Assembly (NCBI RefSeq): GCF_026626705.1
Contig: NZ_JAPNKC010000001.1
Location: forward strand, 2,046,001 to 2,110,000
DNA: 64,000 nucleotides
Direction: 5' to 3'
Source: Pyxidicoccus sp. MSG2
GTDB taxonomy: Bacteria; Myxococcota; Myxococcia; Myxococcales; Myxococcaceae
Part shown: positions 36,212 to 47,332 of the stretch, in pieces
How the letters are laid out: every line of letters starts with the position of its first letter
Position numbering within the stretch: the first letter of the stretch is position 1
Notes under the pieces: model-generated
Database searches by the model: none
Seen by the model: the letters and a program-made list of their open reading frames with translations, nothing else
Told to the model about the DNA's origin: nothing
Translations under genes and position numbers: made by a program

Positions 36212-38314
36212 TCAGTCCTCCGCGAGGAGTAGCTCCACTGCCTCATCGGCACGCGCGGGCCGGTCGAACCAATACTCCCTGAGTAGCGGCTCGACTTCGT
36301 AATCGATGATCTGCTTGTACCAGGCGTCGTCACAGGTGCTCTCTTTTGACGCGCAGAAGTAGCTGTGGCCAACCAGGTAGCCCCGCCCCAGGCTCGGATC
36401 GCCCTCGATATGTTCGTTGAGCGTCCGCACCCGGTTCCGGATGCGCTCGATGAGCGCGGGCGAGGCGCCACGCAATGTCAGGTGCCGATGGAACGACGGC
36501 TCCTCGGTGGCAGGGCCGATATCGATGAACGCAAAGCGCCGCCTCAGCGCGTAGTCGACCATGGCGAGAGAGCGGTCGGCCGTGTTCATGGTTCCGATGA
36601 TGTACAGGTTCGGAGGAACGTAGAACGGCGCGTCCTTCTCTTCTGCATAGGCGAGCGAGACACCCCACCGCGACTCTCGCTTGTCGGGCTCGATGAGCAT
36701 CATCAGCTCACCGAAGATCTTGCTGAGGTTGCCCCGGTTGATTTCATCGATGATGAGGACGTAATCGTCCTCCGGGTCCTGCAGCGCTCGGTCGCAGAAG
36801 CGGAGAAAGGGTCCGTCCTTCAGCTCGAAGCCACCCGCCTTCGCGGGGCGATAGCCCTGGACGAAGTCCTCGTAGGCGTAGGACTGGTGGAATTGGACGA
36901 AGCAGACATGGTCGGGGGCATGCCGCTCGAGGATGAGGTTCGCCAGACGCGAGGCAACGAAGGTCTTGCCCACTCCTGGCGGGCCCTGGAGGACGACGTT
37001 CTTGCGGTGGCGCACCAGGGTGACGAGGTGCTCCAGCTCCGAACGAGGCAGGAAGATTTCCGCCATGGCATCGTCCAACGTGTAAGGCGGCTCGGGTGGC
37101 TTCGGCGGAGGCAGTTTGGGAATCGAGGCTCCCGCCCCCTGGCCGTCACTCCCACCCACCTCCACGGCGGCTTCCAGTTCCGCAACCAGCCCCGCATAGG
37201 CCGTGACGTTCGTCAGCGTCTTCGTCACCAGCGGCCGCTCACGGGGCTGCTTCTCACCGGACCACAGCCACTTCACCTTCCTCACGCTGTTGTAGTCGCG
37301 GCGAGTGGTGTCGTAACGATAGTCGGACTCCACCACGCCGTATCCCACGATGAGATGACGGCCCTTCTTGGCGAAGACGACATCCCCGGGCCGTATCACC
37401 TGCGCGAACTCCCAGCAGGCCAGCGCGTCGTGCCGTGGCTCGACGGCGTCGTCTCCACCCTTCTTGCGAAGCGCATCCTTGATGGAATCCAAATCCGGGT
37501 ACCTGCGGAGATCTCCCAGGTCGTCCCACCCGATCGCCACGATGCCGTCGCGATAGAACTCCTCCCAATGGTCGGCACGCGGCCCCGGGGCGATGAGCCA
37601 TACCTGCCGCCCGGTCGGCTGCGGCGCGGGAGCCGGAACCACGGCCCCGGGTACCATCGCGGCCTCCTCCCACTCACACACATGCTCCAACTCCCACGGG
37701 CTGATTCGGAGGGCAGCCTGGAGCTCCCGCACCTGAGCGGTGAAGCGGAAATAGGAATCGACCGCGTCTTCACTCCGCTCGAACAAGCCCTCCTCTGCGA
37801 GGCGCGTCCGCATCGATTCGTAATAGATGGGCCACTGCTCGGGCGCCTCCATGTGCCAGGCCGCGCTGACAAAGAAGGGAGTCCGCGTCGGCTGGACCGC
37901 CCTGCGGGTCGTTACCCCCTGGGCAATCAGCTCCACGAGACGGTCATGGAAGCCCATCATCCGGCTACGTGCCTCTTCATCTGACGACGGCAGGGGCAGG
38001 ACCGAGCGCAGACGCACTTCGATGTCTCGCGCATATGCGGGCAGGTGCTTAACCAGGGTGTTCAGGAACATGGCCCCGGACAGGCCCTTGAGCCCGAACA
38101 CGTCCCACTCGTTCCGGGTGTTCACGTCGAACGTGGAGCGGAGCGCCTCCAAGCCCACACTGCCTGCCCTGAATGCGCTGAACAGGGCGCGGATTTCCTC
38201 GCGAACCTTCTTGCGAGCCACATCCCGGTCGGCCTGGGCCTCCATGTAGGCCAGGTCATTCCGCATGGCATCGAGCCGCTGCTTCCATCGTCCAACGACC
38301 GCGTCACTCAGCAT
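36212..38314 (-). CDS. mcrB: McrB-like AAA+ GTPase with EVE-like domain
   Basis: 700 residues. The C-terminal half is a McrB AAA+ motor: Walker A GPPGVGKT near residue 443, Walker B VLIIDEINRGN, the McrB signature GTMNTADRS, and ALRRRFAF. In place of the E. coli-type DNA-binding domain there is a helical N-terminal region (1-230) and then an EVE/PUA-like segment (about 238-380: VWLIAPGPRADHWEEFY, IAIGWDDLGDL, IRPGDVVFAKKG, IVGYGVVESDY). EVE domains are known or predicted to bind modified bases and are often fused to McrB. This suggests the target is hypermodified or methylated DNA; which base cannot be told. It is transcribed away from the cys operon leader and followed by mcrC. Confidence 0.9.
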   Translation of the reverse strand: MLSDAVVGRWKQRLDAMRNDLAYMEAQADRDVARKKVREEIRALFSAFRAGSVGLEALRSTFDVNTRNEWDVFGLKGLSGAMFLNTLVKHLPAYARDIEVRLRSVLPLPSSDEEARSRMMGFHDRLVELIAQGVTTRRAVQPTRTPFFVSAAWHMEAPEQWPIYYESMRTRLAEEGLFERSEDAVDSYFRFTAQVRELQAALRISPWELEHVCEWEEAAMVPGAVVPAPAPQPTGRQVWLIAPGPRADHWEEFYRDGIVAIGWDDLGDLRRYPDLDSIKDALRKKGGDDAVEPRHDALACWEFAQVIRPGDVVFAKKGRHLIVGYGVVESDYRYDTTRRDYNSVRKVKWLWSGEKQPRERPLVTKTLTNVTAYAGLVAELEAAVEVGGSDGQGAGASIPKLPPPKPPEPPYTLDDAMAEIFLPRSELEHLVTLVRHRKNVVLQGPPGVGKTFVASRLANLILERHAPDHVCFVQFHQSYAYEDFVQGYRPAKAGGFELKDGPFLRFCDRALQDPEDDYVLIIDEINRGNLSKIFGELMMLIEPDKRESRWGVSLAYAEEKDAPFYVPPNLYIIGTMNTADRSLAMVDYALRRRFAFIDIGPATEEPSFHRHLTLRGASPALIERIRNRVRTLNEHIEGDPSLGRGYLVGHSYFCASKESTCDDAWYKQIIDYEVEPLLREYWFDRPARADEAVELLLAED

Positions 38315-38406
38315 GGCTTCAAACGTTAGGCGGGAAAGGGAGCGAGAAATCAGTGGGTAGGAGACACTCCGACGCGAGGGCCTGAGCGCCCCCCTCGCAG
38401 GGCAGG

Positions 38407-38436
38407 TTGACGCCGGACCCCGACCGCCGTTACTTT
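38407..38436 (+). promoter_or_regulatory. Possible sigma70-type promoter for the cys operon
   Basis: TTGACG (38407-38412) is followed 18 bases later by TACTTT (38431-38436). The -10 match is poor. A second caggttgacgcc copy lies at 38464-38475 in a partly repeated stretch, so the -35 hit may be coincidence. Confidence 0.3.
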
Positions 38437-38520
38437 GGAAATTCCTCCGTTACGTTGGATGCCCAGGTTGACGCCCTCCACCCCGACCGCCGCGCTGTTC
38501 CGCTGCCGCTGCTGTCGGTC

Positions 38521-38580
38521 GTGTGCCTGTTGTGCCCTGTCGGGCCTGGGCTGTTGACGCGCGCACCGGACCTCTTCTGA
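38521..38580 (+). CDS. Possible first leader peptide (19 aa, two early Cys codons)
   Basis: A GTG-started 19-codon ORF with TGC at codons 2 and 5 and a TGA stop 17 bases before the first hairpin. No clear ribosome binding site. It is called only because a second, far more Cys-rich ORF stands in the same position relative to the second hairpin. It could be chance. Confidence 0.3.
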   Translation: MCLLCPVGPGLLTRAPDLF

Positions 38581-38597
38581 GTCCACGCGTTTCCTCC

Positions 38598-38638
38598 CGG
38601 CCCGGCCTCCTCTCGAAGGAGCCGGGCCGCTCGCTTTT
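38598..38638 (+). terminator. Terminator-like hairpin 1 in the cys leader
   Basis: A 13-bp GC-rich stem with one bulged base (arms 38598-38611 and 38617-38629), five-base loop, then ctcgctttt. The T run is short. It shares layout with hairpin 2 (GC stem, CTC/GAG top, a few Ts). It lies between mcrB and cysH, on the plus-strand leader. Confidence 0.6.
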
Positions 38639-38674
38639 CCGCCTCCTGCTCTCCCACCGCAGCTCCCGCGTCTC

Positions 38675-38833
38675 ATGCCTTCCACTGCTTCCCGCTCCGC
38701 TCCGAAGTCCCTCGCGCTGACCGCCGCGAGCGGAGCGTCGTGGGCCCGGGGCGTGTGCGGCGCGTGCTGTCTGGCGTGTGCGTGTCCCGTGTGTCCGCCT
38801 CCCGGCGGGTGCCGAGCAGCGAGGAGTGGCTAG
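38675..38833 (+). CDS. Cys-rich leader ORF of the sulfate-assimilation operon
   Basis: A 52-codon ORF from ATG 38675, or a 26-codon ORF from the in-frame GTG at 38753, ending at TAG 38831-38833. Counted from the GTG, cysteines are at 2, 5, 6, 9, 11, 14 and 20: seven in 20 residues, including C-G-A-C-C. Neither start has a strong ribosome binding site. The stop is 29 bases before a strong terminator, and cysH starts 85 bases after the stop. Leader peptides rich in the end-product amino acid are how amino-acid operons sense charged tRNA, so ribosome stalling at Cys codons could control readthrough into cysH. The peptide itself probably has no other role. A small metal-binding protein is the alternative. 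Confidence 0.65.
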   Translation: MPSTASRSAPKSLALTAASGASWARGVCGACCLACACPVCPPPGGCRAARSG

Positions 38834-38862
38834 CAGTCCCTTCTCGACCTTCCCTGCTCGCG

Positions 38863-38900
38863 CGGCCCGCCCTCGAAAGAGGCGCGGGCCGTTTTCGTTT
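38863..38900 (+). terminator. Intrinsic terminator / attenuator hairpin 2 before cysH
   Basis: A 12-bp GC stem (38863-38874 with 38879-38891, one bulge) closed by a GAAA tetraloop and followed by gttttcgttt. This is the best intrinsic terminator in the window, and it sits between the Cys-rich ORF and cysH, so it must be bypassed for operon expression. The bases ggcggg (38804-38809), within the leader ORF, could pair with cccgcc (866-871 of the left arm) as an antiterminator; that pairing is a guess. Confidence 0.8.
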
Positions 38901-38918
38901 CCACCCTCGGAGTCCTCC

Positions 38919-39662
38919 ATGTCGCCCCCGCTGTCCGCCACCTCCCTCGCAGTCTCCACCCCGGCCCCCCTCGACGAGGCGCGCGCATTGAAGGACGCGC
39001 CCGTGGAGGAGGTGCTCGCCTGGGTGGAGCGGCGGTTCGGCGCGCGCGCGGCCCTCGCCTCCAGCTTCGGCGTGGAGGACATGGTCCTCATCGACCTGGC
39101 GCGCAAACACGCGCCGAGTCTCCGCGTCTTCACTCTCGACACCGGCCGTCTCCCGCCAGAGACGTACGAGCTCATCGAGGTGACTCGCAACCGCTACGGC
39201 ATCGCCGTGGAGACCTTCTTCCCCGAGCGCACGCGCGTGGAGGCGATGGAGTCCACGCTGGGCTACTTCTCCTTCCGCAAGAACCTCGAGGCGCGCAAGG
39301 AGTGCTGCGCCATCCGCAAGGTGGAGCCGCTGCGGCGCGCGCTCGCTGGCCGCGAGGCGTGGGTGACGGGCCTGCGCCGCGAGCAGTCCGTCACCCGCAC
39401 CGCCGTCGACATCGCCGAGGTCGACGCCGAACACGGAGGCCTCCTCAAGCTCAGCCCGCTGGCCGCGTGGACCCGCCAGGACGTGTGGGCCTACGTGAAG
39501 GCCAACGCCGTCCCCTACAACGCGCTCCATGACCGCGGCTACCCGTCCATCGGCTGCGCGCCCTGCACCCGCGCGGTGAAGCCGTACGAGGACGAGCGCG
39601 CCGGCCGCTGGTGGTGGGAAGCGCGCGAGCACAGCGAGTGCGGCCTGCACCCGGTCCGCTGA
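38919..39662 (+). CDS. cysH: Phosphoadenylyl/adenylyl-sulfate reductase, APS-reductase type
   Basis: 247 residues from ATG 38919, with GGAG six bases upstream. It reduces activated sulfate to sulfite using thioredoxin. The [4Fe-4S] cysteine pairs of APS-using enzymes are present (KECCAIRKVEPL and GCAPCTRAV), together with GRWWWE and the catalytic C-terminal ECGLH. ASSFGVEDMVLIDL marks the PP-loop-type nucleotide site. PAPS-type enzymes lack the cluster cysteines, so the substrate is probably APS. This fits the absence of an intact APS kinase in the operon. It is the first gene of the operon, directly after the leader terminator. Confidence 0.94.
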   Translation: MSPPLSATSLAVSTPAPLDEARALKDAPVEEVLAWVERRFGARAALASSFGVEDMVLIDLARKHAPSLRVFTLDTGRLPPETYELIEVTRNRYGIAVETFFPERTRVEAMESTLGYFSFRKNLEARKECCAIRKVEPLRRALAGREAWVTGLRREQSVTRTAVDIAEVDAEHGGLLKLSPLAAWTRQDVWAYVKANAVPYNALHDRGYPSIGCAPCTRAVKPYEDERAGRWWWEAREHSECGLHPVR

Positions 39663-39669
39663 GCGCGCC

Positions 39670-40320
39670 ATGAGCCACCCCATCGACTACCCCGTCTGCC
39701 TCCGCCTGGAGGGGCGCCGCGTCCTCCTCGTGGGAGGCGGCACCATCGCCGAGGGCCGCGCCCTCGCCGCGCTCGAGGCCGGCGCCCGGCTGCGCGTCGT
39801 CGCCCCCGAGGCCACCGCCACGCTGCGCACCCTGGCCACCGAGGGCCGCCTCGAATGGCTCGCCCGCCCCTATGCCTCCGGCGACGTACGCGGGCACGAC
39901 CTCGTCCTCGCCGCCGCGGACGACACGAGCGTGGGCCCTCGCGTGGCGGCGGAGGCGCGGGCGCTCGGCATCTGGGTGAACACGGCGGACGTGCCAGCGC
40001 TGTGCGACTTCACGCTGCCCTCCGTGGGACGCCGGGGCCCCATCACCTTGGCCATCTCCACCGCCGGCCAGGCGCCCGCCGTGGCCCGGCTGCTGCGCCG
40101 CGAGCTGACGGCGCGGGTGGCACCGCACCACGTGTGGCTGGCGCGGCTCAGCGGGTGGCTGCGCCGCCGCCTGCCCGCGGGCGTGGAGCGCCAGCGGCTC
40201 TTGAAGGGGCTGGTGGAGGGAGACATCGGCGCGCTGCTGGCACGGGGCGAGCGCAAGGCCGCGGGAGTCCGACTCCGCGCGGCGCTGAAGACCTTGAAGT
40301 CATCGGGAGAGACGACATGA
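39670..40320 (+). CDS. Precorrin-2 dehydrogenase / sirohydrochlorin ferrochelatase-like
   Basis: 216 residues, 7 bp after cysH. It has the N-terminal NAD-binding domain of siroheme synthase (Met8/SirC, the N-terminal part of CysG): RRVLLVGGGTIAEGRALAAL as the dinucleotide fold, ADDTSVGPRVAAEARALGIWVNTAD, CDFTLPSVGRRGPITLAISTAG, and the helical C-terminal dimerisation region. It oxidises precorrin-2 to sirohydrochlorin and may insert iron, supplying siroheme to CysI. Its stop overlaps the start of the next gene (ATGA), indicating translational coupling. The ferrochelatase activity is not certain from sequence. Confidence 0.9.
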   Translation: MSHPIDYPVCLRLEGRRVLLVGGGTIAEGRALAALEAGARLRVVAPEATATLRTLATEGRLEWLARPYASGDVRGHDLVLAAADDTSVGPRVAAEARALGIWVNTADVPALCDFTLPSVGRRGPITLAISTAGQAPAVARLLRRELTARVAPHHVWLARLSGWLRRRLPAGVERQRLLKGLVEGDIGALLARGERKAAGVRLRAALKTLKSSGETT

Positions 40321-41117
40321 GAGAGCAGGTGCAGGGACGCGTGTTCCTGGTGGGAGCAGGCCCGGGAGACCCGGAGCTGCTCACGCTGCGCGCGGCGCGG
40401 TTGCTGAGAGAAGCGGACACGGTGGTGCATGACAGGCTCGTCCATCCCGCGGTGCTGGAGCACGCGCGTCCCCGCGCGCGCCTCATCTACGTGGGCAAGG
40501 AAGGCGGCGGCGAGTCCGTGCGGCAGGAGGACATCCACTCCGTGCTCATCACCCAGGCCCTGCTGGGCCGTCAGGTGGTGCGCCTCAAGGGCGGAGACCC
40601 GTTCGTCTTCGGCCGCGGCGCGGAAGAAGCCCTCGCGCTGGAGAAGGCCGGCATTCCCTACGAGGTGGTGCCCGGCCTGTCCGCGGGCATCGCCGCGACG
40701 GCCTCGGCGGCCATCCCCGTCACCCACCGGGACGTGTCCGGAGAGGTGACGTTCGCCACCGCGCACCGCGTGGGCGGCGCGCCGGACTGGGACTTCCTCG
40801 CGAGGGCCCAGACGCTGGTGCTCTTCATGGCGGGAGACCGACTGGAAGCGACGGTGCGCGCCCTGGTGACGGCGGGCCGGGCCGCTTCGACGCCTGCGGC
40901 AATGGTGGAGGCGGGCACGTGGGAGCACCAGCGGGTGGTGGAGGCCACGCTGGGCAACATCGCCCTCGAGGCGCGGCGGGCCGCCATCGGCTCCCCGGCG
41001 CTGCTGGTGGTGGGCGAGGTGGTGGCGCTGCGCTCGCGGCTGCCGTCGCTGGTGGCACGCGGTTCAACGATGAATGGGCACCCGGTGCCCCTGAAGGCGG
41101 AGGGTGGCCATGAGTGA
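40317..41117 (+). CDS. cobA: Uroporphyrinogen-III C-methyltransferase (SUMT)
   Basis: 266 residues from an ATG overlapping the previous stop by 4 bases, with a GGGAGAG ribosome binding site. Family motifs: [20 protein letters not shown] (SAM binding), [48 protein letters not shown] and LVLFMAG. It methylates uroporphyrinogen III twice to precorrin-2, the substrate of the preceding gene product. Together the two replace the fused CysG of enterobacteria. The end overlaps cysD by 8 bases. The short C-terminal tail past the family core ([14 protein letters not shown]) looks unstructured. Confidence 0.95.
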
Positions 41118-42027
41118 GAACACGCTGGCGAGGACCACGCACCTGGCGGAACTGGAGGCGGAGAGCATCCACATCCTGCGCGAGACGGTGGCCGAGTTCG
41201 CCAACCCGGTGATGCTCTACAGCATCGGCAAGGACTCGCAGGTGCTGCTGCACCTGGCGCGCAAGGCCTTCCACCCCGCGCCCCTGCCCTTCCCGCTCCT
41301 CCACGTGGACACCACCTGGAAGTTCCGGGACATGTACACCTTCCGCGACGCCTTCGTGGCCCGGCACGGGCTGAAACTCCTCGTGCACCAGAACCGCCGC
41401 GCGCTCGCCGAGGGCATCAACCCCTTCGACCACGGCAGCCAGAAGTACACCCACGCCATGAAGACGCAGGCGCTGCTGGAGGCGCTGGCGCAGCACGGCT
41501 TCGACGCGGCCTTCGGCGGTGCGCGCCGCGACGAGGAGAAGTCCCGCGCGAAGGAGCGCGTGTTCTCCTTCCGCGACAGGCACGGCCAGTGGGACCCGCG
41601 CCGGCAGCGGCCGGAGCTGTGGAACCTCTACAACGGCCGCGTGGACGCCGGGGAGAGCATGCGCGTCTTCCCCCTCTCCAACTGGACCGAGCTGGACGTG
41701 TGGCACTACGTGCTGCGCGAGCGCATTCCGGTGGTGCCGCTCTACTTCGCCGCCGAGCGCCCCGTCATCGACCGCAACGGCACGCTGCTGATGGTGGACG
41801 ACGAGCGCATGCGCCTGCGCCCGGGCGAGAAGCCCTCGCTGAGGCGGGTGCGCTTCCGCACGCTCGGCTGCTACCCGCTGAGCGGCGCCATCGAGTCCTC
41901 CGCCACCACGGTGGAGGCCGTCATCCACGAGATGGTCAACGCCCGCCAGTCCGAGCGCCAGGGCCGTCTCATCGACCACGACGAAGAGGGCTCCATGGAG
42001 CTCAAGAAGCGCGAGGGCTACTTCTAA
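41110..42027 (+). CDS. cysD: Sulfate adenylyltransferase subunit 2
   Basis: 305 residues from ATG 41110, with GGAGGG five bases upstream. I prefer this to the GTG two codons earlier. It makes APS from sulfate and ATP together with CysN. The PP-loop ATP-pyrophosphatase motif is seen as [18 protein letters not shown]. Other family blocks: [45 protein letters not shown] and [14 protein letters not shown]. The stop overlaps the start of cysN by one base (TAATG), a usual arrangement for the two subunits. Confidence 0.97.
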
Positions 42028-43763
42028 TGGATACCGCACTGCAGACACCTCCCCAGCCCGACGTGCAACGGCTCCTCGATGAGCACTCCAGCCGCGAGCT
42101 GCTGCGGCTCGTCGTCGTGGGCTCCGTGGACGACGGGAAGTCCACGCTCATCGGCCGGCTCCTCTACGAGTGCGACGGCCTCTTCGAGGACCAGATTTCC
42201 GCCGTGAAGAAGGCCAGCGCCAAGCGCGCCGCCGCTCGCACCGAGGTGCCCCCGGAGGTGCTCGCCCAGGGCCTCAGGGCGGCAGCCGGAGCCGAGGACG
42301 AGGAGCTGGACTTCTCCCTCTTCACCGACGGCCTGAAGGCCGAGCGCGAGCAGGGCATCACCATCGACGTGGCCTACCGCTACCTGTCCACGGGCAAGCG
42401 CAAGGTCATCATCGCGGACACGCCGGGACACATCCAATACACGCGCAACATGGCCACCGGCGCCTCCACGGCGGATGCGGCGGTCATCCTGGTAGACGCG
42501 CGCCTGGGCGTGCTTCCGCAGACGCGCCGGCACGCGTACATCGCCTCGCTGCTGGGCATCCCCTACCTGGCCGTCGCGGTGAACAAGATGGACCTGGTCG
42601 GCTTCGACCGCGCCACCTTCGAGCGCATCGGCCAGGAGCTGGCGGACTTCGCGTACACGCTCGGCTTCGAGGGCGTGCGCCTCTTCCCCGTCAGCGCGAG
42701 CCGGGGCGACAACATCACCCGGCCCAGTGCGAGGACGCCGTGGAACGAGGGCGGCACGCTGCTCGGGTGGCTGGAGTCGCTGCCCCACCAGCGCCGGCTC
42801 GACAACGCCGCCTTCCGCTTCCCCGTGCAGTACGTGCTCCGGCCGCACCAGGACTACCGCGGGCTGGCCGGCCAGGTGGCCTCCGGCACCGTGCGCGTGG
42901 GTGACGAGGTGCAGGTGCTCCCCTCCGGGCGCCGCACGCGCGTGGCGGGCATCGACACCTTCGACGGACCACTCGAGGAGGCGTCCGCGCCGGCTTCCGT
43001 GACGCTGCGGCTGGCGGACGAGGTGGACGCCAGCCGGGGTGACTTGCTGTCCCACGTGGACGAGCCGCCGCTCGCGCTCCACCAGCTCGACGCGATGCTG
43101 GTGTGGTTCGGGGAGCAGCCGTTGGACGTCTCGCGCCGCTACCTGGTGAAGCAGGCCACGCGCACCGCGCCCGCGCAGGTGGAGCGCATCCTCTGGCGCA
43201 AGGAGCTGGAGGACCTGTCCGAGGTACCCGCGGAGGCGCTGTCCCTCAACGACATCGGCAAGGTGCGGCTGGTGTGCCGCCGGCCACTGCTGGCCGACCC
43301 GTACCGCGACAACCGGCGCACCGGTGCCTTCATCATCATCGACGCCCTCACGCACGACACGGTGGGCGCGGGCATGGTGCTGGGGCCGGCGGACACGGGG
43401 ACTCGGGGCGCGGTGGAGGCGTCCCTCGTCTCCTCGGCCGAGCGGCGCGCGCGGCTGGGGCAGCCTGGGGCCATCGTCCTCCTGCCGTCCTCGCCGGGGG
43501 CTGCGTCGCGTGCCTTCGAGCTGGAACGGAGCCTGTTCGACCAGGGCCGGCACGTAGCCACCGTCGCGGGTGACGTGGAGGTGGCGCTCGGGCTGGCCGG
43601 CGCGGGGCTGGTGGCGCTGGTGCACACCGAGGCGCCACAGACGCGGCGAGTCCTCCGCGCGGAGGCTCGCGACGCGGGCGTGGCGTGGCTGGAACTGGAT
43701 GCGTCCGAGGACGCGAAGCAGCACGTGGAGCGCGTCCTGGCGCTCGGGGAGAACGTGAAGTGA
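42027..43763 (+). CDS. cysN: Sulfate adenylyltransferase subunit 1 with degenerate APS-kinase tail
   Basis: 578 residues. The EF-Tu-like GTPase that drives CysD: G1 GSVDDGKST (residues 32-40), EREQGITIDVAYRY, DTPGHIQYTRNM and NKMDLVG. The CysN core ends near VGAGMV. About 125 further residues resemble the start of CysC (APS kinase): PGAIVLLPSSPGAASRAFEL aligns with the CysC P-loop region but lacks the GxxGxGKS/T residues, and RSLFDQGRHVATVAGD aligns with the strand ending in DGDN. The tail appears to be a shortened, catalytically dead CysC from a CysNC ancestor. A direct APS-reductase route would make APS kinase dispensable. It overlaps cysJ (GTGA). Confidence 0.95.
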   Translation: MDTALQTPPQPDVQRLLDEHSSRELLRLVVVGSVDDGKSTLIGRLLYECDGLFEDQISAVKKASAKRAAARTEVPPEVLAQGLRAAAGAEDEELDFSLFTDGLKAEREQGITIDVAYRYLSTGKRKVIIADTPGHIQYTRNMATGASTADAAVILVDARLGVLPQTRRHAYIASLLGIPYLAVAVNKMDLVGFDRATFERIGQELADFAYTLGFEGVRLFPVSASRGDNITRPSARTPWNEGGTLLGWLESLPHQRRLDNAAFRFPVQYVLRPHQDYRGLAGQVASGTVRVGDEVQVLPSGRRTRVAGIDTFDGPLEEASAPASVTLRLADEVDASRGDLLSHVDEPPLALHQLDAMLVWFGEQPLDVSRRYLVKQATRTAPAQVERILWRKELEDLSEVPAEALSLNDIGKVRLVCRRPLLADPYRDNRRTGAFIIIDALTHDTVGAGMVLGPADTGTRGAVEASLVSSAERRARLGQPGAIVLLPSSPGAASRAFELERSLFDQGRHVATVAGDVEVALGLAGAGLVALVHTEAPQTRRVLRAEARDAGVAWLELDASEDAKQHVERVLALGENVK

Positions 43764-45610
43764 GTCCGTCGTCGGCAGGAGGGGCCTCGCGCCCCGTGGC
43801 GCCACCCTTCGTCACCCCGCTGCTGGGTGACGAGAAGGGCGCGCTGCTGCTCAAGCTGGTGGAGGGCCTGGATGCGGCGGCCCTGCACTGGCTGAGCGGC
43901 TATGCGGCGGGACTGGCCTCGCGGCCCGGTTCCGCTCCGGTCTCCGTGGCGGCGCCCGTGTCCGCCACGCCCGCGGCCGCTCCGGCGGTGCCGCTCACCA
44001 TCGTCTACGGGACGCAGACGGGGAACAGCCGGCTGCTGGCGGAGCGGCTCAAGCACCAGGTGGAGTCCGCCGGGCTGCCAGCTCGACTCTTCCGCGCCAG
44101 TGACTACCCCCTGCGGGAGCTGGCGAAGGAGAAGCTGCTCTGCGTGGTCATCAGCACGCAGGGGGATGGAGACCCGCCGGACGACTCGCGCGGCTTCTGC
44201 GAACACGTGCTGGGCAAGCGGGCCCCGAAGCTGGAGGGGCTGCGCTTCGCGGTGCTGGGACTGGGCGACTCCAGCTACCCGAAGTTCTGCGAGGTGGGCC
44301 GCGCGCTCGACGCGCGCTTCACGGAACTGGGCGCCACCCGGCTGCTGGAGCGCGCCGACTGCGACGTGGACTTCGAGCCCGTGGCCACGGGGTGGCTCGA
44401 CCAGGCCTTCGCCCGGGCCCGCGAGGCGCTGGAGCCCCAGGCCCCCCCCATCGCGGCCGTCGTCCCCCTGCGCGGCGCGGCTGCCACGCCGACGTCCAGC
44501 AAGGAAGCGCCCTTCGCCGCCGAGGTGCTGGTCAACCAGCGCATCACCGGCCGGGGCGCGCTCAAGGACGTGCGGCACGTGGAAGTGTCGCTCGAAGGCT
44601 CGGGCCTGGAGTACGCGCCGGGCGATGCACTCGGCGTGTGGCCGCACAACCCGCCCGAGTTGGTGGACGCGTTCCTGTCCGAGCTGAAGCTGGACGGGGA
44701 CACGGAGGTGAAGCGGGACGGGCGCACGCTACCGCTGGCGAAGTGGCTGGGCGAGGAACTGGAGCTGACGAAGCTCAACCGGCCCTTCCTGGAGCGCCAC
44801 GCAGCGCTGGCGGGCAGCGCGGAGCTGAAGCGGTTGCTGGAGCCATCCGGCGCGGAGGGTTTCCGTGCGCTGCTGGCCAGCCACCAGGTCATCGACCTGC
44901 TGCGCGCGCACCGGGCGCCGTGGGGTGCGGCGGAGCTCGTCGCGGCGCTGCGCAAGCTGGCGCCGCGGCTGTACTCGATTGCCTCCAGCCCGAAGCGCGT
45001 GGGCGCGGAGGCGCACCTGACGGTGTCGGTGGTGGACTACACGGCCTTCGGCACGCGGCACCTCGGCGCCGCGTCGTCCTACCTCGCCGCGCGGGCGGCC
45101 GGGACGGACAAGGTCCGCGTCTTCATCGAACCCAACGAGCGCTTCCGCCTGCCGGAGGATGGCGACAAGGACGTGCTGATGATTGGCCCGGGCACGGGCG
45201 TGGCGCCCTTCCGCGCCTTCGTGCAGGAGCGCGCGGAGCTGGGCGCGCGCGGCCGCAACTGGCTCTTCTTCGGCGAGCAGCACTTCCGCACGCAGTTCCT
45301 CTACCAGGTGGAGTGGCAGGAGGCCCTGAAGAAGAAGACGCTGCATCGGCTGTCCCTCGCCTTCTCGAGAGATCGCGCGGAGAAGGTCTACGTACAGCAC
45401 CGCCTGCGCGAGGCCGGGCGCGAGGTCTACGAATGGCTGGACGGCGGCGCCTCCCTCTATGTCTGCGGTGACGCCCAGCGCATGGCCCCGGACGTCCACG
45501 CGGCGCTGCTGGACATCGTCTCCACCCACGGCGGGAAGAGCCGTGAGGACGCGGAGGCCTGGCTCCAGGGTCTGCGCGAGCAGCGGCGCTACCTGCGCGA
45601 CGTCTACTGA
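43760..45610 (+). CDS. cysJ: Sulfite reductase flavoprotein, alpha subunit
   Basis: 616 residues from a GTG overlapping the cysN stop, with GGGGAG 8 bases upstream. Electron-transfer partner of CysI, taking electrons from NADPH. Domains: an N-terminal extension with Pro/Ala linker (1-75); FMN flavodoxin (about 76-225: VYGTQTGNSRLLAERL, STQGDGDPPDDSRGF, LGLGDSSYPKFC); FAD-binding with connecting domain (about 250-450: YAPGDALGVWPHNP, RLYSIASSP); and NADPH-binding (about 470-616: IGPGTGVAPFRAFVQER, FFGEQHF, YVCGDAQRMAPDVHAAL, terminal RRYLRDVY). All cofactor motifs look intact. Confidence 0.96.
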   Translation: MSPSSAGGASRPVAPPFVTPLLGDEKGALLLKLVEGLDAAALHWLSGYAAGLASRPGSAPVSVAAPVSATPAAAPAVPLTIVYGTQTGNSRLLAERLKHQVESAGLPARLFRASDYPLRELAKEKLLCVVISTQGDGDPPDDSRGFCEHVLGKRAPKLEGLRFAVLGLGDSSYPKFCEVGRALDARFTELGATRLLERADCDVDFEPVATGWLDQAFARAREALEPQAPPIAAVVPLRGAAATPTSSKEAPFAAEVLVNQRITGRGALKDVRHVEVSLEGSGLEYAPGDALGVWPHNPPELVDAFLSELKLDGDTEVKRDGRTLPLAKWLGEELELTKLNRPFLERHAALAGSAELKRLLEPSGAEGFRALLASHQVIDLLRAHRAPWGAAELVAALRKLAPRLYSIASSPKRVGAEAHLTVSVVDYTAFGTRHLGAASSYLAARAAGTDKVRVFIEPNERFRLPEDGDKDVLMIGPGTGVAPFRAFVQERAELGARGRNWLFFGEQHFRTQFLYQVEWQEALKKKTLHRLSLAFSRDRAEKVYVQHRLREAGREVYEWLDGGASLYVCGDAQRMAPDVHAALLDIVSTHGGKSREDAEAWLQGLREQRRYLRDVY

Positions 45611-45634
45611 CCCTTTCCCTTCGTGAGCGACGAC

Positions 45635-47332
45635 ATGAGTCACCAGTCCAAGCCTCTGTCCGAGGTGGAGCACATCAAGACGCAGAGCCGCCTCTTGCGC
45701 GGCACGCTGGCGGAGAGCCTGGTGGACCCGGTGACGGGCGCCATCGCCACGCCGGACACCAGCCTCATCAAGTTCCACGGCAGCTATCAGCAAGACGACC
45801 GGGACATCCGCGAGGAGCGCCGGCAGCAGAAGCTGGAGCCGGCCTACAGCTTCATGCTCCGCACGCGTCTGCCCGGCGGCGTGTGCACGCCGGCCCAGTG
45901 GCTGGCCATGGACGCGCTGGCGAGGGAGTTCGCCAACCACACCCTGCGCATCACCACGCGGCAGGCGTTCCAGCTCCATGGCGTCATCAAGGACGACCTC
46001 AAGCCCACCATCGCCCGCATCAACCAGGCGTTGATGGACACGCTGGCCGCCTGCGGCGACGTGAATCGCAACGTGCTGTGCAACCCGAACCCGGTGGACT
46101 CGCGCGTCCACGAGACGGTGTACCAGTGGGCGGTGCGCGTCTCCGAGCACCTGCTGCCGAAGACTCGCGCCTACTACGAGGTCTGGCTGGACGAGGAGAA
46201 GGTGGCCGGCGGCGAGGACGAGCCCATCTACGGCGCCACCTACCTGCCCCGGAAGTTCAAGACCGCCGTCGCGGTGCCACCCCTCAACGACGTGGACGTC
46301 TTCGCGCAGGACCTGGGCTTCATCGCCATCCTGGAGGGCGGAGAGCTGGCCGGCTTCAACGTCTCGGTGGGCGGCGGCATGGGCGCCACGCACGGGGACG
46401 CGGCCACGTACCCACGGCTGGCGGACGTGGTCGGCTTCATCCCTCCGGAGAAGACGCTCGCCGTCGCGGAGGAGGTGGTGAAGATTCACCGCGACTTCGG
46501 GGACCGCGGCAACCGCAAGCACGCGCGGCTGAAGTACGTCCTGGAGGAGCGCGGCGTCGCGTGGTTCACGGCGGAGCTGGAGCGGCGGCTCGGCTTCGCG
46601 CTGCAGCCCGCGCGCGCATTCGCGTTCGAGCACAACGGCGACCGCTTCGGCTGGGTGGAGGGGCATGACGGGAAGTGGCACCTGACGCTGCACCTGGACA
46701 GCGGCCGCGTGGCGGACCACCCCGGGGCGCCGCACCTCACCGGCCTGCGGGAGATTGCCCGCATCCACCAGGGCGACTTCCGGCTCACGGCGAACCAGAA
46801 CCTCGTCATCGCGAACGTACGCGCCGAGGCCAGGGAGTCCATCGACGCGCTGGTGGCCCGGTATGGGCTGGACGGCTTCCGGAGCGCCAGCCCCCTGCGA
46901 AGGAATGCGCTGGCATGCGTGGCACTGCCCACCTGCGGCCTGGCCATGGCCGAGGCGGAGCGCTACCTGCCCGCGTTCGTGGAGAAGCTGGAGGCACGGC
47001 TGGTGGCGCATGGCCTGCGGGACGCCAACCTCCTGCTGCGCATCACCGGCTGCCCGAATGGCTGCGCGCGGCCGTACCTCGCGGAGGTGGGGCTCGTGGG
47101 CAAGGCGCCGGGCCGCTACAACCTCCACCTCGGTGGCGACGCGCGCGGCCAGCGGCTGAACCGGCTGTATCGGGAGAATATCGACGAGGACGGCATCCTC
47201 GGTGCGCTGGAGCCGCTGTTCGCGGAGTACTCACGCGAGCGGAAGCCGGGCGAGGGCTTCGGTGACTTCGTGGTGCGGGCGGGCCATGTCCCGGCGGTGC
47301 CGGCGAAGGGGACCGCGACCCAGGCGGCCTGA
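45635..47332 (+). CDS. cysI: Sulfite reductase hemoprotein, beta subunit
   Basis: 565 residues from ATG 45635; a GTG at 45623 would add four. It reduces sulfite to sulfide at a coupled siroheme-[4Fe-4S] site. Family features: the N-terminal ferredoxin-like half ([45 protein letters not shown]); [11 protein letters not shown]; the cluster/siroheme motifs [17 protein letters not shown] and [20 protein letters not shown] with the four ligand cysteines; and the end GDFVVRAG. Siroheme is supplied by the second and third genes of the operon. Last gene of the operon; a hairpin follows. Confidence 0.97.

What the first reader, a model, noticed from the sequence alone, without database searches (positions are those of the whole stretch)
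38521..38918. Cysteine-sensing attenuator with tandem hairpins before the sulfate-assimilation operon
An untracked ORF (38675 or 38753 to 38833) encodes seven Cys in about 20 residues and ends just before a strong terminator (38863-38900) that cysH must read through. A second hairpin (38598-38638), with a short ORF carrying two early Cys codons, lies upstream in the same relative layout. Seen: the ORFs and hairpins. Known: leader peptides rich in the end-product amino acid drive attenuation. Inferred: Cys-tRNA starvation stalls ribosomes and allows cys expression. A tandem two-step version controlling a whole cysH-to-cysI operon would be new to me.
Basis: partly seen in the sequence, partly recalled or inferred. 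Interest (0 to 1): 0.8.

Follow-up and report, generated by a model that had tools for sequence, protein, structure and literature searches.

The report
Twin cysteine-sensing transcription switches before cysH
Two cysteine-rich mini-genes, each followed by its own RNA stop signal, sit in series in front of this bacterium's sulfate-to-cysteine operon and most likely shut it off when cysteine is plentiful; the same device also guards other cysteine and sulfur genes in some relatives.

Summary
Each is followed by a terminator-like hairpin, and each ORF's 3' end can pair with that hairpin's 5' arm (antiterminator). Both leaders are kept in 30 of 30 genomes of genera g1 (27), g5 (2) and g20 (1), in frame while residues vary. 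A covariance model found the element, single, before a second cysK in seven of these genomes (this one included), before nitrite/sulfite-reductase-cysH operons in two further genera, and before a Sulf_transp gene. Best reading: a trp-type ribosome-mediated attenuator sensing charged tRNA-Cys, duplicated in tandem. Known: actinobacterial Cys leaders without terminators; Salmonella mgtCBR tandem attenuators with two different signals. In ten searches of an open-access library I saw no Cys attenuator with an intrinsic terminator, nor a same-signal tandem. Against: terminator 1 is weak in 10 of 30 genomes, antiterminator covariation is thin, and equilibrium folding favours the terminator, so switching must be kinetic. 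Transcription start, translation, termination and cysteine response are inferred; no expression data were available.

The parts
38407..38436 (+). Promoter-like site TTGACG-N18-TACTTT upstream of leader 1
   Evidence: TTGAC with a -10-like hexamer (at least 3 of 6 to TATAAT) at 17-18 nt spacing in 29 of 30 relatives; end of the -10 to the picked start codon: median 11 nt, range 7-79 (the 79, L008, looks like a wrong start pick), 22 nt in this window. Not a mapped promoter; the stricter scan found none.
38459..38557 (+). Leader ORF 1, MPRLTPSTPTAALFRCRCCRSCACCALSGLGC*; Cys codons at 38504, 38510, 38513, 38522, 38528, 38531, 38552
   Evidence: Frame conserved in 30 of 30 genomes with 5-8 Cys in the last 25 codons, against 0-2 in each other frame
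38541..38607 (+). Antiterminator 1: CGGGCC-U-GGG (38541-38550) pairs with CCCGGCCCG of the terminator 5' arm and encloses the stop codon
   Evidence: Minimum energy of the stretch from ORF tail to terminator 5' arm is -17.8 to -42.2 kcal/mol in 30 genomes; 26 of 30 with z below -1, 14 of 30 below -2. By eye the fold joins tail and arm, wholly or in part, in 27; not in L125 and L126, and the L123 stretch was cut short.
38598..38640 (+). Terminator 1 hairpin (38598-38629) and interrupted T-tract
   Evidence: Aligned in 30 genomes; dG -18 or lower in 20 of 30, weaker in 10; in 13 of 30 the script's pick is followed by at most 4 T in 10
38675..38833 (+). Leader ORF 2; Cys codons at 38756, 38765, 38768, 38777, 38783, 38792, 38810
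   Evidence: In-frame ATG in 30 of 30; 4-14 Cys in the last 25 codons, against 0-3 in the other frames
38795..38808 (+). 1:2 (protector) hairpin CCGCC-UCCC-GGCGG
   Evidence: 98% of cells paired in 30 genomes against 27-59% when slid; no two-sided change
38804..38871 (+). Antiterminator 2: GGCGGG..CGAGCAG pairs with CUGCUCG..CCCGCC; inner hairpin over the stop codon
   Evidence: Predicted hairpin of -30.7 to -40.2 kcal/mol in the 30 unit 2 copies; 90% of cells paired against 29-56% slid, no two-sided change
38863..38900 (+). Terminator 2 hairpin (38863-38891) and T-tract TTTTCGTTT
   Evidence: 94% of cells paired against 45-56% slid
38919..39662 (+). cysH, first gene of the controlled operon
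   Evidence: NF002537 282.9 bits, TIGR02055 271.4 bits
39670..47332 (+). Rest of operon: cysG N-terminal domain protein (39670-40320), uroporphyrinogen-III methyltransferase (40323-41117), cysD (41110-42027), cysN (to 43763), cysJ (to 45610), cysI (to 47332); start codons not refined
   Evidence: NCBIfam matches TIGR01470, NF004790/TIGR01469, TIGR02039, TIGR02034, TIGR01931, TIGR02041. Co-transcription is inferred from spacing.

Best explanation
A pair of ribosome-mediated (trp-type) transcription attenuators in series, both sensing charged tRNA-Cys, controls cysH-to-cysI. With cysteine plentiful, the ribosome translates each Cys-rich leader to its stop codon, covers region 2, and the terminator (3:4) forms, so RNA polymerase stops at about 38635 or 38900. 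When charged tRNA-Cys is scarce, the ribosome stalls on the Cys codons, region 2 pairs with the terminator's 5' arm before the 3' arm is made, and polymerase reads through. Two gates in series should multiply, giving low basal expression and a steep response. Shown by sequence: the leaders, frame conservation, mutually exclusive hairpins, recurrence before other cysteine/sulfur genes. Inferred: transcription start, translation of the leaders, termination, response to cysteine, and serial action.
For: Two Cys leaders in 30 of 30 genomes. Cys codons are enriched only in the leader frame (means 6.2 and 6.1 per 25 codons, against 1.0-1.7 in the other frames). In-frame ATG for leader 2 in 30 of 30 despite length differences. 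Terminator, antiterminator and 1:2 hairpin of unit 2 are kept; unit 1 has the same layout. On 25 diverse elements, 6 pairs of the terminator and 1:2 helix change on both sides (0 of 500 shuffles reach this; the alignment was fitted to this structure). Matched region 2 and region 3 pair better than swaps between 13 lineage groups (227 of 20000 permutations as good; 39 of 41 elements used). In nascent RNA ending before the terminator 3' arm, a ribosome at a Cys codon leaves the 5' arm held by region 2 (mean 0.88 unit 2, n 30; 0.69 unit 1, n 30; 0.81 cysK, n 7). The same element lies before other cysteine/sulfur genes: cysK in 7 of 7 second paralogues and 0 of 34 other cysK loci checked; NIR_SIR followed by cysH in G137 and G089; Sulf_transp in G137. 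No TTGAC[AG] between terminator 1 and stop 2 in 29 of 30.
Against: Full-length equilibrium folding favours the terminator wherever the ribosome sits (mean P 0.94 stalled against 1.00 at stop for unit 2, n 30; 0.80 against 0.85 for unit 1, 23 of 30 scored), so the switch needs kinetic control. The antiterminator shows no two-sided covariation in the automated counts. In the swap test 6 of 13 groups pair no better with their own partner than with the others' on average (Cit, G121u2, Mcl3, Mcl4, Mcl5, Pyx). The zero at the stop codon follows from masking region 2, and unit 1 of L125 and L126 scores only 0.08 and 0.23 there. Terminator 1 is weak in 10 of 30 genomes and T-poor in 13 of 30. No leader has a Shine-Dalgarno-like GGAG/GAGG/AGGA. 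34 of 70 examined cysH loci of the order show no element by these scans, two of them cut short by contig ends. No RNA or expression data.
Confidence: 0.85

Rival explanations
1. Only unit 2 is a working attenuator; unit 1 is a duplicated relic whose leader or terminator no longer gates transcription.
For: Terminator 1 is weak (dG above -18) in 10 of 30 genomes and its picked hairpin is T-poor in 13 of 30; antiterminator 1 scores lower against shuffles than antiterminator 2 (median z -1.71 against -3.17); single-unit elements exist before cysK, in Archangium-type genomes and elsewhere.
Against: Leader 1 keeps 5-8 Cys and its frame in 30 of 30; terminator 1 is strong in 20 of 30 and its arms change together between clades, by eye.
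Confidence: 0.2
2. Translational or Rho-dependent attenuation by Cys leaders, as proposed for mycobacteria, with the hairpins acting on mRNA stability or ribosome access to cysH.
For: Cys leaders in actinobacteria are described that way (passages of PMC1262725, PMC9031893, PMC13236596); in most relatives leader 1 starts close to its predicted promoter, like the leaderless mycobacterial ORFs; the generic terminator scan found none here.
Against: Hairpins end in T-rich tracts and resemble hairpins that follow unrelated genes in relatives (L188, L198); the antiterminator overlaps the terminator arm and does not cover the cysH start.
Confidence: 0.08
3. The Cys-rich ORFs make functional small peptides (metal-binding or modified) and the hairpins are ordinary terminators of a small gene.
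For: Two Cys-rich reading frames are conserved.
Against: N-terminal parts and Cys positions vary widely, tails are fixed at the RNA level while their residues change, one relative has a run of 12 Cys, and different leaders precede different cysteine/sulfur genes.
Confidence: 0.04
4. The region is a ligand-binding riboswitch or T-box rather than a leader-peptide attenuator.
For: A conserved structured leader before a biosynthetic operon.
Against: No Rfam match in the leader region of the window at E up to 5 and none at gathering score on L181, L189, L193, L196; the conserved Cys codons would be unexplained.
Confidence: 0.02

Closest known systems
Ribosome-mediated transcription attenuators of the E. 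coli trp/his type (recalled; trp summarised in PMC3641672 section 11, read)
   Same: Leader ORF rich in the end-product amino acid, terminator-like hairpin, alternative antiterminator, 1:2 protector helix in unit 2
   Different: Senses cysteine; two complete units in series for one signal; antiterminator encloses the leader stop codon
Actinobacterial cysteine leader peptides (Seliverstov et al. 2005, PMC1262725, passages read; Canestrari et al. 2020, not held, known only from passages in PMC13236596, PMC9031893, PMC9094748)
   Same: Runs of Cys codons in a short ORF before cysteine operons; in most relatives leader 1 starts close to its predicted promoter
   Different: PMC1262725 reports no conserved terminator hairpins in mycobacteria, and the M. 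smegmatis case is described as translational; here each ORF has a terminator-like hairpin and an antiterminator
Salmonella mgtCBR tandem attenuators (PMC3641672, abstract and section 11 read)
   Same: Two short ORFs in one leader, each controlling transcription into the operon
   Different: mgtM and mgtP sense ATP and proline and their stem-loops do not resemble intrinsic terminators; here both units carry the same Cys signal and terminator-like hairpins, and look duplicated
Tandem riboswitches (metE, as told in PMC3641672 section 11) and tandem rimP-leader terminators (PMC2965389, passages)
   Same: Two termination gates in series
   Different: Ligand or unknown sensing, not a translated Cys leader

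Membership tests
Ribosome-mediated transcription attenuator (trp type) | Short leader ORF rich in codons of the pathway's product amino acid | tested here: met
   Two ORFs with seven Cys each; 30 of 30 genomes
Ribosome-mediated transcription attenuator (trp type) | Intrinsic terminator between leader ORF and first gene | tested here: met
   By anatomy: hairpins with T-rich tails after each ORF; terminator 1 weak in 10 of 30; a generic scan found none; termination itself not shown
Ribosome-mediated transcription attenuator (trp type) | Alternative antiterminator using the ORF 3' part and the terminator 5' arm | tested here: met
   swap test 227 of 20000; no automated two-sided covariation
Ribosome-mediated transcription attenuator (trp type) | 1:2 protector hairpin | tested here: met
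   Unit 2: 98% of cells paired; unit 1 has GCCC-NNNN-GGGC in many genomes but not in the M. xanthus clade (by eye)
Ribosome-mediated transcription attenuator (trp type) | Leader is translated and read-through follows aminoacyl-tRNA level | not testable with these tools
   No ribosome profiling or expression data
Actinobacterial polycysteine leader attenuators | Cys-run short ORF before cysteine genes | tested here: met
Actinobacterial polycysteine leader attenuators | No conserved intrinsic terminator after the leader (PMC1262725) | tested here: not met
   Conserved terminator-like hairpins present
Actinobacterial polycysteine leader attenuators | Leaderless ORF | tested here: inconclusive
   Start codon a median of 11 nt after the -10-like hexamer, 22 nt in this window; no mapped transcription start
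mgtCBR-type tandem attenuators | Two attenuator ORFs in series on one transcript | tested here: inconclusive
   Anatomy fits and no second TTGAC[AG] box in 29 of 30; transcript not shown
mgtCBR-type tandem attenuators | Two different signals | tested here: not met
   Both ORFs are Cys-rich
Known riboswitch, T-box or other Rfam RNA family | Match to an Rfam model | tested here: not met
   Three matches with E up to 5 in 37000-47000, all below gathering score and outside the leader; none on L181, L189, L193, L196 at gathering score

The most novel reading that the evidence does not exclude
A cysteine attenuation regulon in the order Myxococcales (sulfate reduction, a dedicated second cysteine synthase, sulfur uptake) built from one homologous RNA element. 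In the Myxococcus/Pyxidicoccus line it stands as two same-signal gates in series before the cysH operon, giving a multiplicative, steep response. Sister genera have operator-like palindromes at the promoter and a decayed leader with its hairpin left behind (by eye), suggesting replacement between protein repression and attenuation.
Probability: 0.5. Interest if true: 0.78.

Novelty: new variant of a known kind. Interest (0 to 1): 0.7.

Why it matters
Classical attenuation is textbook for Trp, His, Leu, Ile/Val, Thr and Phe; cysteine pathways are usually described under protein regulators or, in actinobacteria, Cys leaders without terminators (general statement partly recalled). A Cys attenuator with a terminator/antiterminator pair and four kinds of target would add an amino acid and a phylum to this mode of control. 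The duplicated same-signal leader is a natural test of what two attenuators in series do to basal level and steepness: one can be removed at a time in a laboratory Myxococcus.

Tried and rejected
The first scan read minus-strand loci in the wrong orientation and missed the leaders of 17 of the 30 tandem genomes; corrected.

Equilibrium folding with a ribosome mask did not show switching; only the nascent-RNA version did, and its zero at the stop codon is built in by masking. Automated covariation for the antiterminator was negative. The terminator search picked a wrong hairpin for unit 2 in six M. xanthus-clade genomes (L018-L020, L023-L025), and its duplex test was weak for unit 1 in many genomes.

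Of the wider R2 hits I fetched 18 weaker places; two (L193, L196) held a Cys leader of 6 Cys, the other 16 had at most 3 Cys in 20 codons and look like bare terminators. The remaining weak hits were not examined. Of the 12 loci, the seven cysK loci and L189 held leaders; L188, L190, L191 and L192 did not.

Riboswitch or T-box: no Rfam match.

Dropped before counts: nine of the 79 genomes with a cysH match (G011, G016, G017, G019, G021, G023, G030, G034, G049) were not fetched; seven of 49 aligned matches (six unit 1 rows and one antisense fragment) lacked the motif used, 39 of 41 motif-bearing elements were assigned to groups, 7 of 30 unit 1 copies were not scored.

Full report
WHAT IS THERE. 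Between a divergent minus-strand ORF (36212-38314, start codon at 38314) and cysH (38919) lie two copies of one layout: Cys-rich short ORF, stop codon, spacer, GC-rich hairpin, T-rich tract. Leader 1 runs 38459-38557 and ends CRCCRSCACCALSGLGC*; leader 2 runs 38675-38833 and ends CGACCLACACPVCPPPGGCRAARSG*. In 5000 dinucleotide shuffles of 38315-38918, 6 gave one cluster of at least 7 Cys in 20 codons and none gave two.

THE OPERON. NCBIfam names the seven genes as cysH, cysG N-terminal domain protein, uroporphyrinogen-III methyltransferase, cysD, cysN, cysJ and cysI. That they are one transcript is inferred from spacing.

CONSERVATION. A cysH search of 145 genomes of the order found 79 with a match. 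I examined up to 800 nt upstream in 70 of the 79 (30 loci, 40 fetched; L116 and L145 are cut short by contig ends). Thirty hold both leaders: 27 of 27 in genus g1, plus G055 and G056 (g5) and G121 (g20). That g1 is Myxococcus/Pyxidicoccus I take from named records with the same leaders, among them Pyxidicoccus caerfyrddinensis, P. fallax and Myxococcus xanthus AM003; in Citreicoccus inhibens only leader 1 passed the threshold of that call. G045 and G048 (Archangium-type) hold a single leader with 4 Cys, G001 and G004 (family f2) one with 5. In G089 and G137 the leader lies one gene further up. The other 34 of 70 show none by these scans.

SELECTION ON CYS CODONS. Over the last 25 codons leader 1 has 5-8 Cys in frame and leader 2 has 4-14; each other frame has 0-3 (30 genomes). 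Positions of the Cys codons shift between clades, and G121 has an unbroken run of 12 in leader 2. An in-frame ATG for leader 2 is present in 30 of 30 although its length varies.

RNA STRUCTURE, UNIT 2. Three mutually exclusive helices are kept: 1:2 (CCGCC/GGCGG, 98% of cells paired), 2:3 antiterminator (GGCGGG..CGAGC with GCTCG..CCCGCC, 90%) and 3:4 terminator (94%). Sliding the partner columns gives 27-59%. Because these arms are nearly invariant, the set has little covariation: one two-sided pair in the terminator, none in the other two. In one search the antiterminator is predicted as one long hairpin with the leader stop codon near its tip in the 42 elements folded (30 unit 2 copies -30.7 to -40.2 kcal/mol; others down to -46.5; weakest -25.6 in L137, which was cut short).

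COVARIATION. For the antiterminator, RNAalifold on 36 elements gave none. By eye, CGAGC/GCTCG becomes CGAGT/ACTCG in Archangium-type elements and CGGGTCG/CGACTCG in G121 unit 1. A swap test over 39 of 41 elements in 13 lineage groups found matched pairing better on average than swapped (227 of 20000 permutations as good), carried mainly by the cysK, M. xanthus, f7 and Archangium groups; 6 of 13 groups showed no advantage.

UNIT 1. It has the same layout. The stretch from ORF tail to terminator arm folds at -17.8 to -42.2 kcal/mol, 26 of 30 with z below -1 and 14 of 30 below -2; L125 and L126 do not fold as antiterminators. Terminator 1 is strong in 20 of 30 and weaker in 10. A model trained only on unit 2 copies (R1) also finds unit 1 of G121 (E 2.3e-21) and, weakly, unit 1 in six further loci (E 1.1e-4 to 0.02, which also returned one antisense fragment at 0.037). 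This fits origin by duplication, firmly only for G121.

SERIES ARRANGEMENT. A TTGAC box with a -10-like hexamer lies before leader 1 in 29 of 30, the start codon a median of 11 nt after it (22 nt in this window); a TTGAC[AG] box between terminator 1 and stop 2 occurs in 1 of 30. So RNA reaching cysH probably passes both hairpins. This is inferred; the generic promoter scan found nothing at its cut-off.

A REGULON. Model R1, searched over the 145 genomes, returned unit 2 in the 30 genomes it was built from and found a second locus elsewhere in seven g1 genomes, G000 included (C1:1542885-1543006, E 6.9e-13). There MSLPLPTTGAQCCCCRVACACCCLAGPEHWESA* precedes cysK (TIGR01139, 411 bits). These seven each carry two cysK copies; the leader is before 7 of 7 of the second copies and before none of 34 other cysK loci checked, the seven sister copies among them. 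Model R2 over 195 genomes of the phylum and follow-up of 18 of its weaker places added a second element in G137 (family f7), before a Sulf_transp plus DUF6691 pair, and one in G089 (g14), before a NIR_SIR reductase followed by cysH; G137's first element precedes a NIR_SIR reductase followed by cysH. The other 16 places held no Cys leader.

MECHANISM. Shown: the parts and their conservation. Inferred: ribosome stalling on Cys codons frees region 2. In nascent RNA without the terminator 3' arm, the 5' arm is held by region 2 when the ribosome sits on a Cys codon (means 0.88, 0.69, 0.81 for unit 2, unit 1, cysK). Completed RNA favours the terminator in either state, so the outcome must be decided during transcription, as attenuators of this type are generally thought to work (recalled).

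LITERATURE. Searches: (held library only; listings seen). PMC1262725 (passages) reports Cys-run leaders in Mycobacterium, Propionibacterium and Bifidobacterium, without conserved terminator hairpins in Mycobacterium. PMC9031893, PMC9094748 and PMC13236596 (passages) cite Canestrari 2020, which I could not read. PMC3641672 (abstract and section 11) describes tandem attenuators for two signals whose stem-loops do not resemble intrinsic terminators. None of the listings showed a Cys transcription attenuator with an intrinsic terminator, or any in Myxococcota; most subscription papers are not in the library.

VERDICT. A real, conserved, probably functional tandem cysteine attenuator; a new variant of a known kind.

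Noticed in passing
L093 5460-5710 and L083 12384-12596: In two Bacteroidota loci a SAM riboswitch (RF00162, 62.9 and 76.9 bits) is followed at once by a short ORF ending in a Cys run (CCCCCC* and CCICCMCCCC*); in L093 it lies about 290 nt before the cysH match. A possible SAM-plus-cysteine double sensor.
   Followed up: partly
cysH upstream regions of L026, L027, L111, L113, L118-L121 (and the cysK promoter in L186): Genera with a decayed, short or absent Cys leader carry palindromes such as TCCGYTATARCGGA or ATCCGCCATATTGGC near the TTGACG box, and several keep a hairpin before cysH (by eye only, a regex did not recover them). Suggests a repressor site.
   Followed up: partly
L028, L030, L114: Archangium-type genomes keep the start of a leader-like ORF and a hairpin but no Cys run, as if the attenuator were decaying (by eye).
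   Followed up: no
L123 (G121), leader 2: Leader 2 holds 12 Cys codons in a row, mostly TGC repeats, perhaps grown by repeat slippage.
   Followed up: no
L041 (BNCN01000014.1): A record titled Comamonas sp. KCTC 72670 carries a Myxococcus-like cysH (78% identity to the window's) and both leaders; probably mislabelled.
   Followed up: no
G000:C1:1543044-1543958 and 2890290-2891198: Seven g1 genomes have two cysK genes about 80% alike; only one has the Cys leader.
   Followed up: yes
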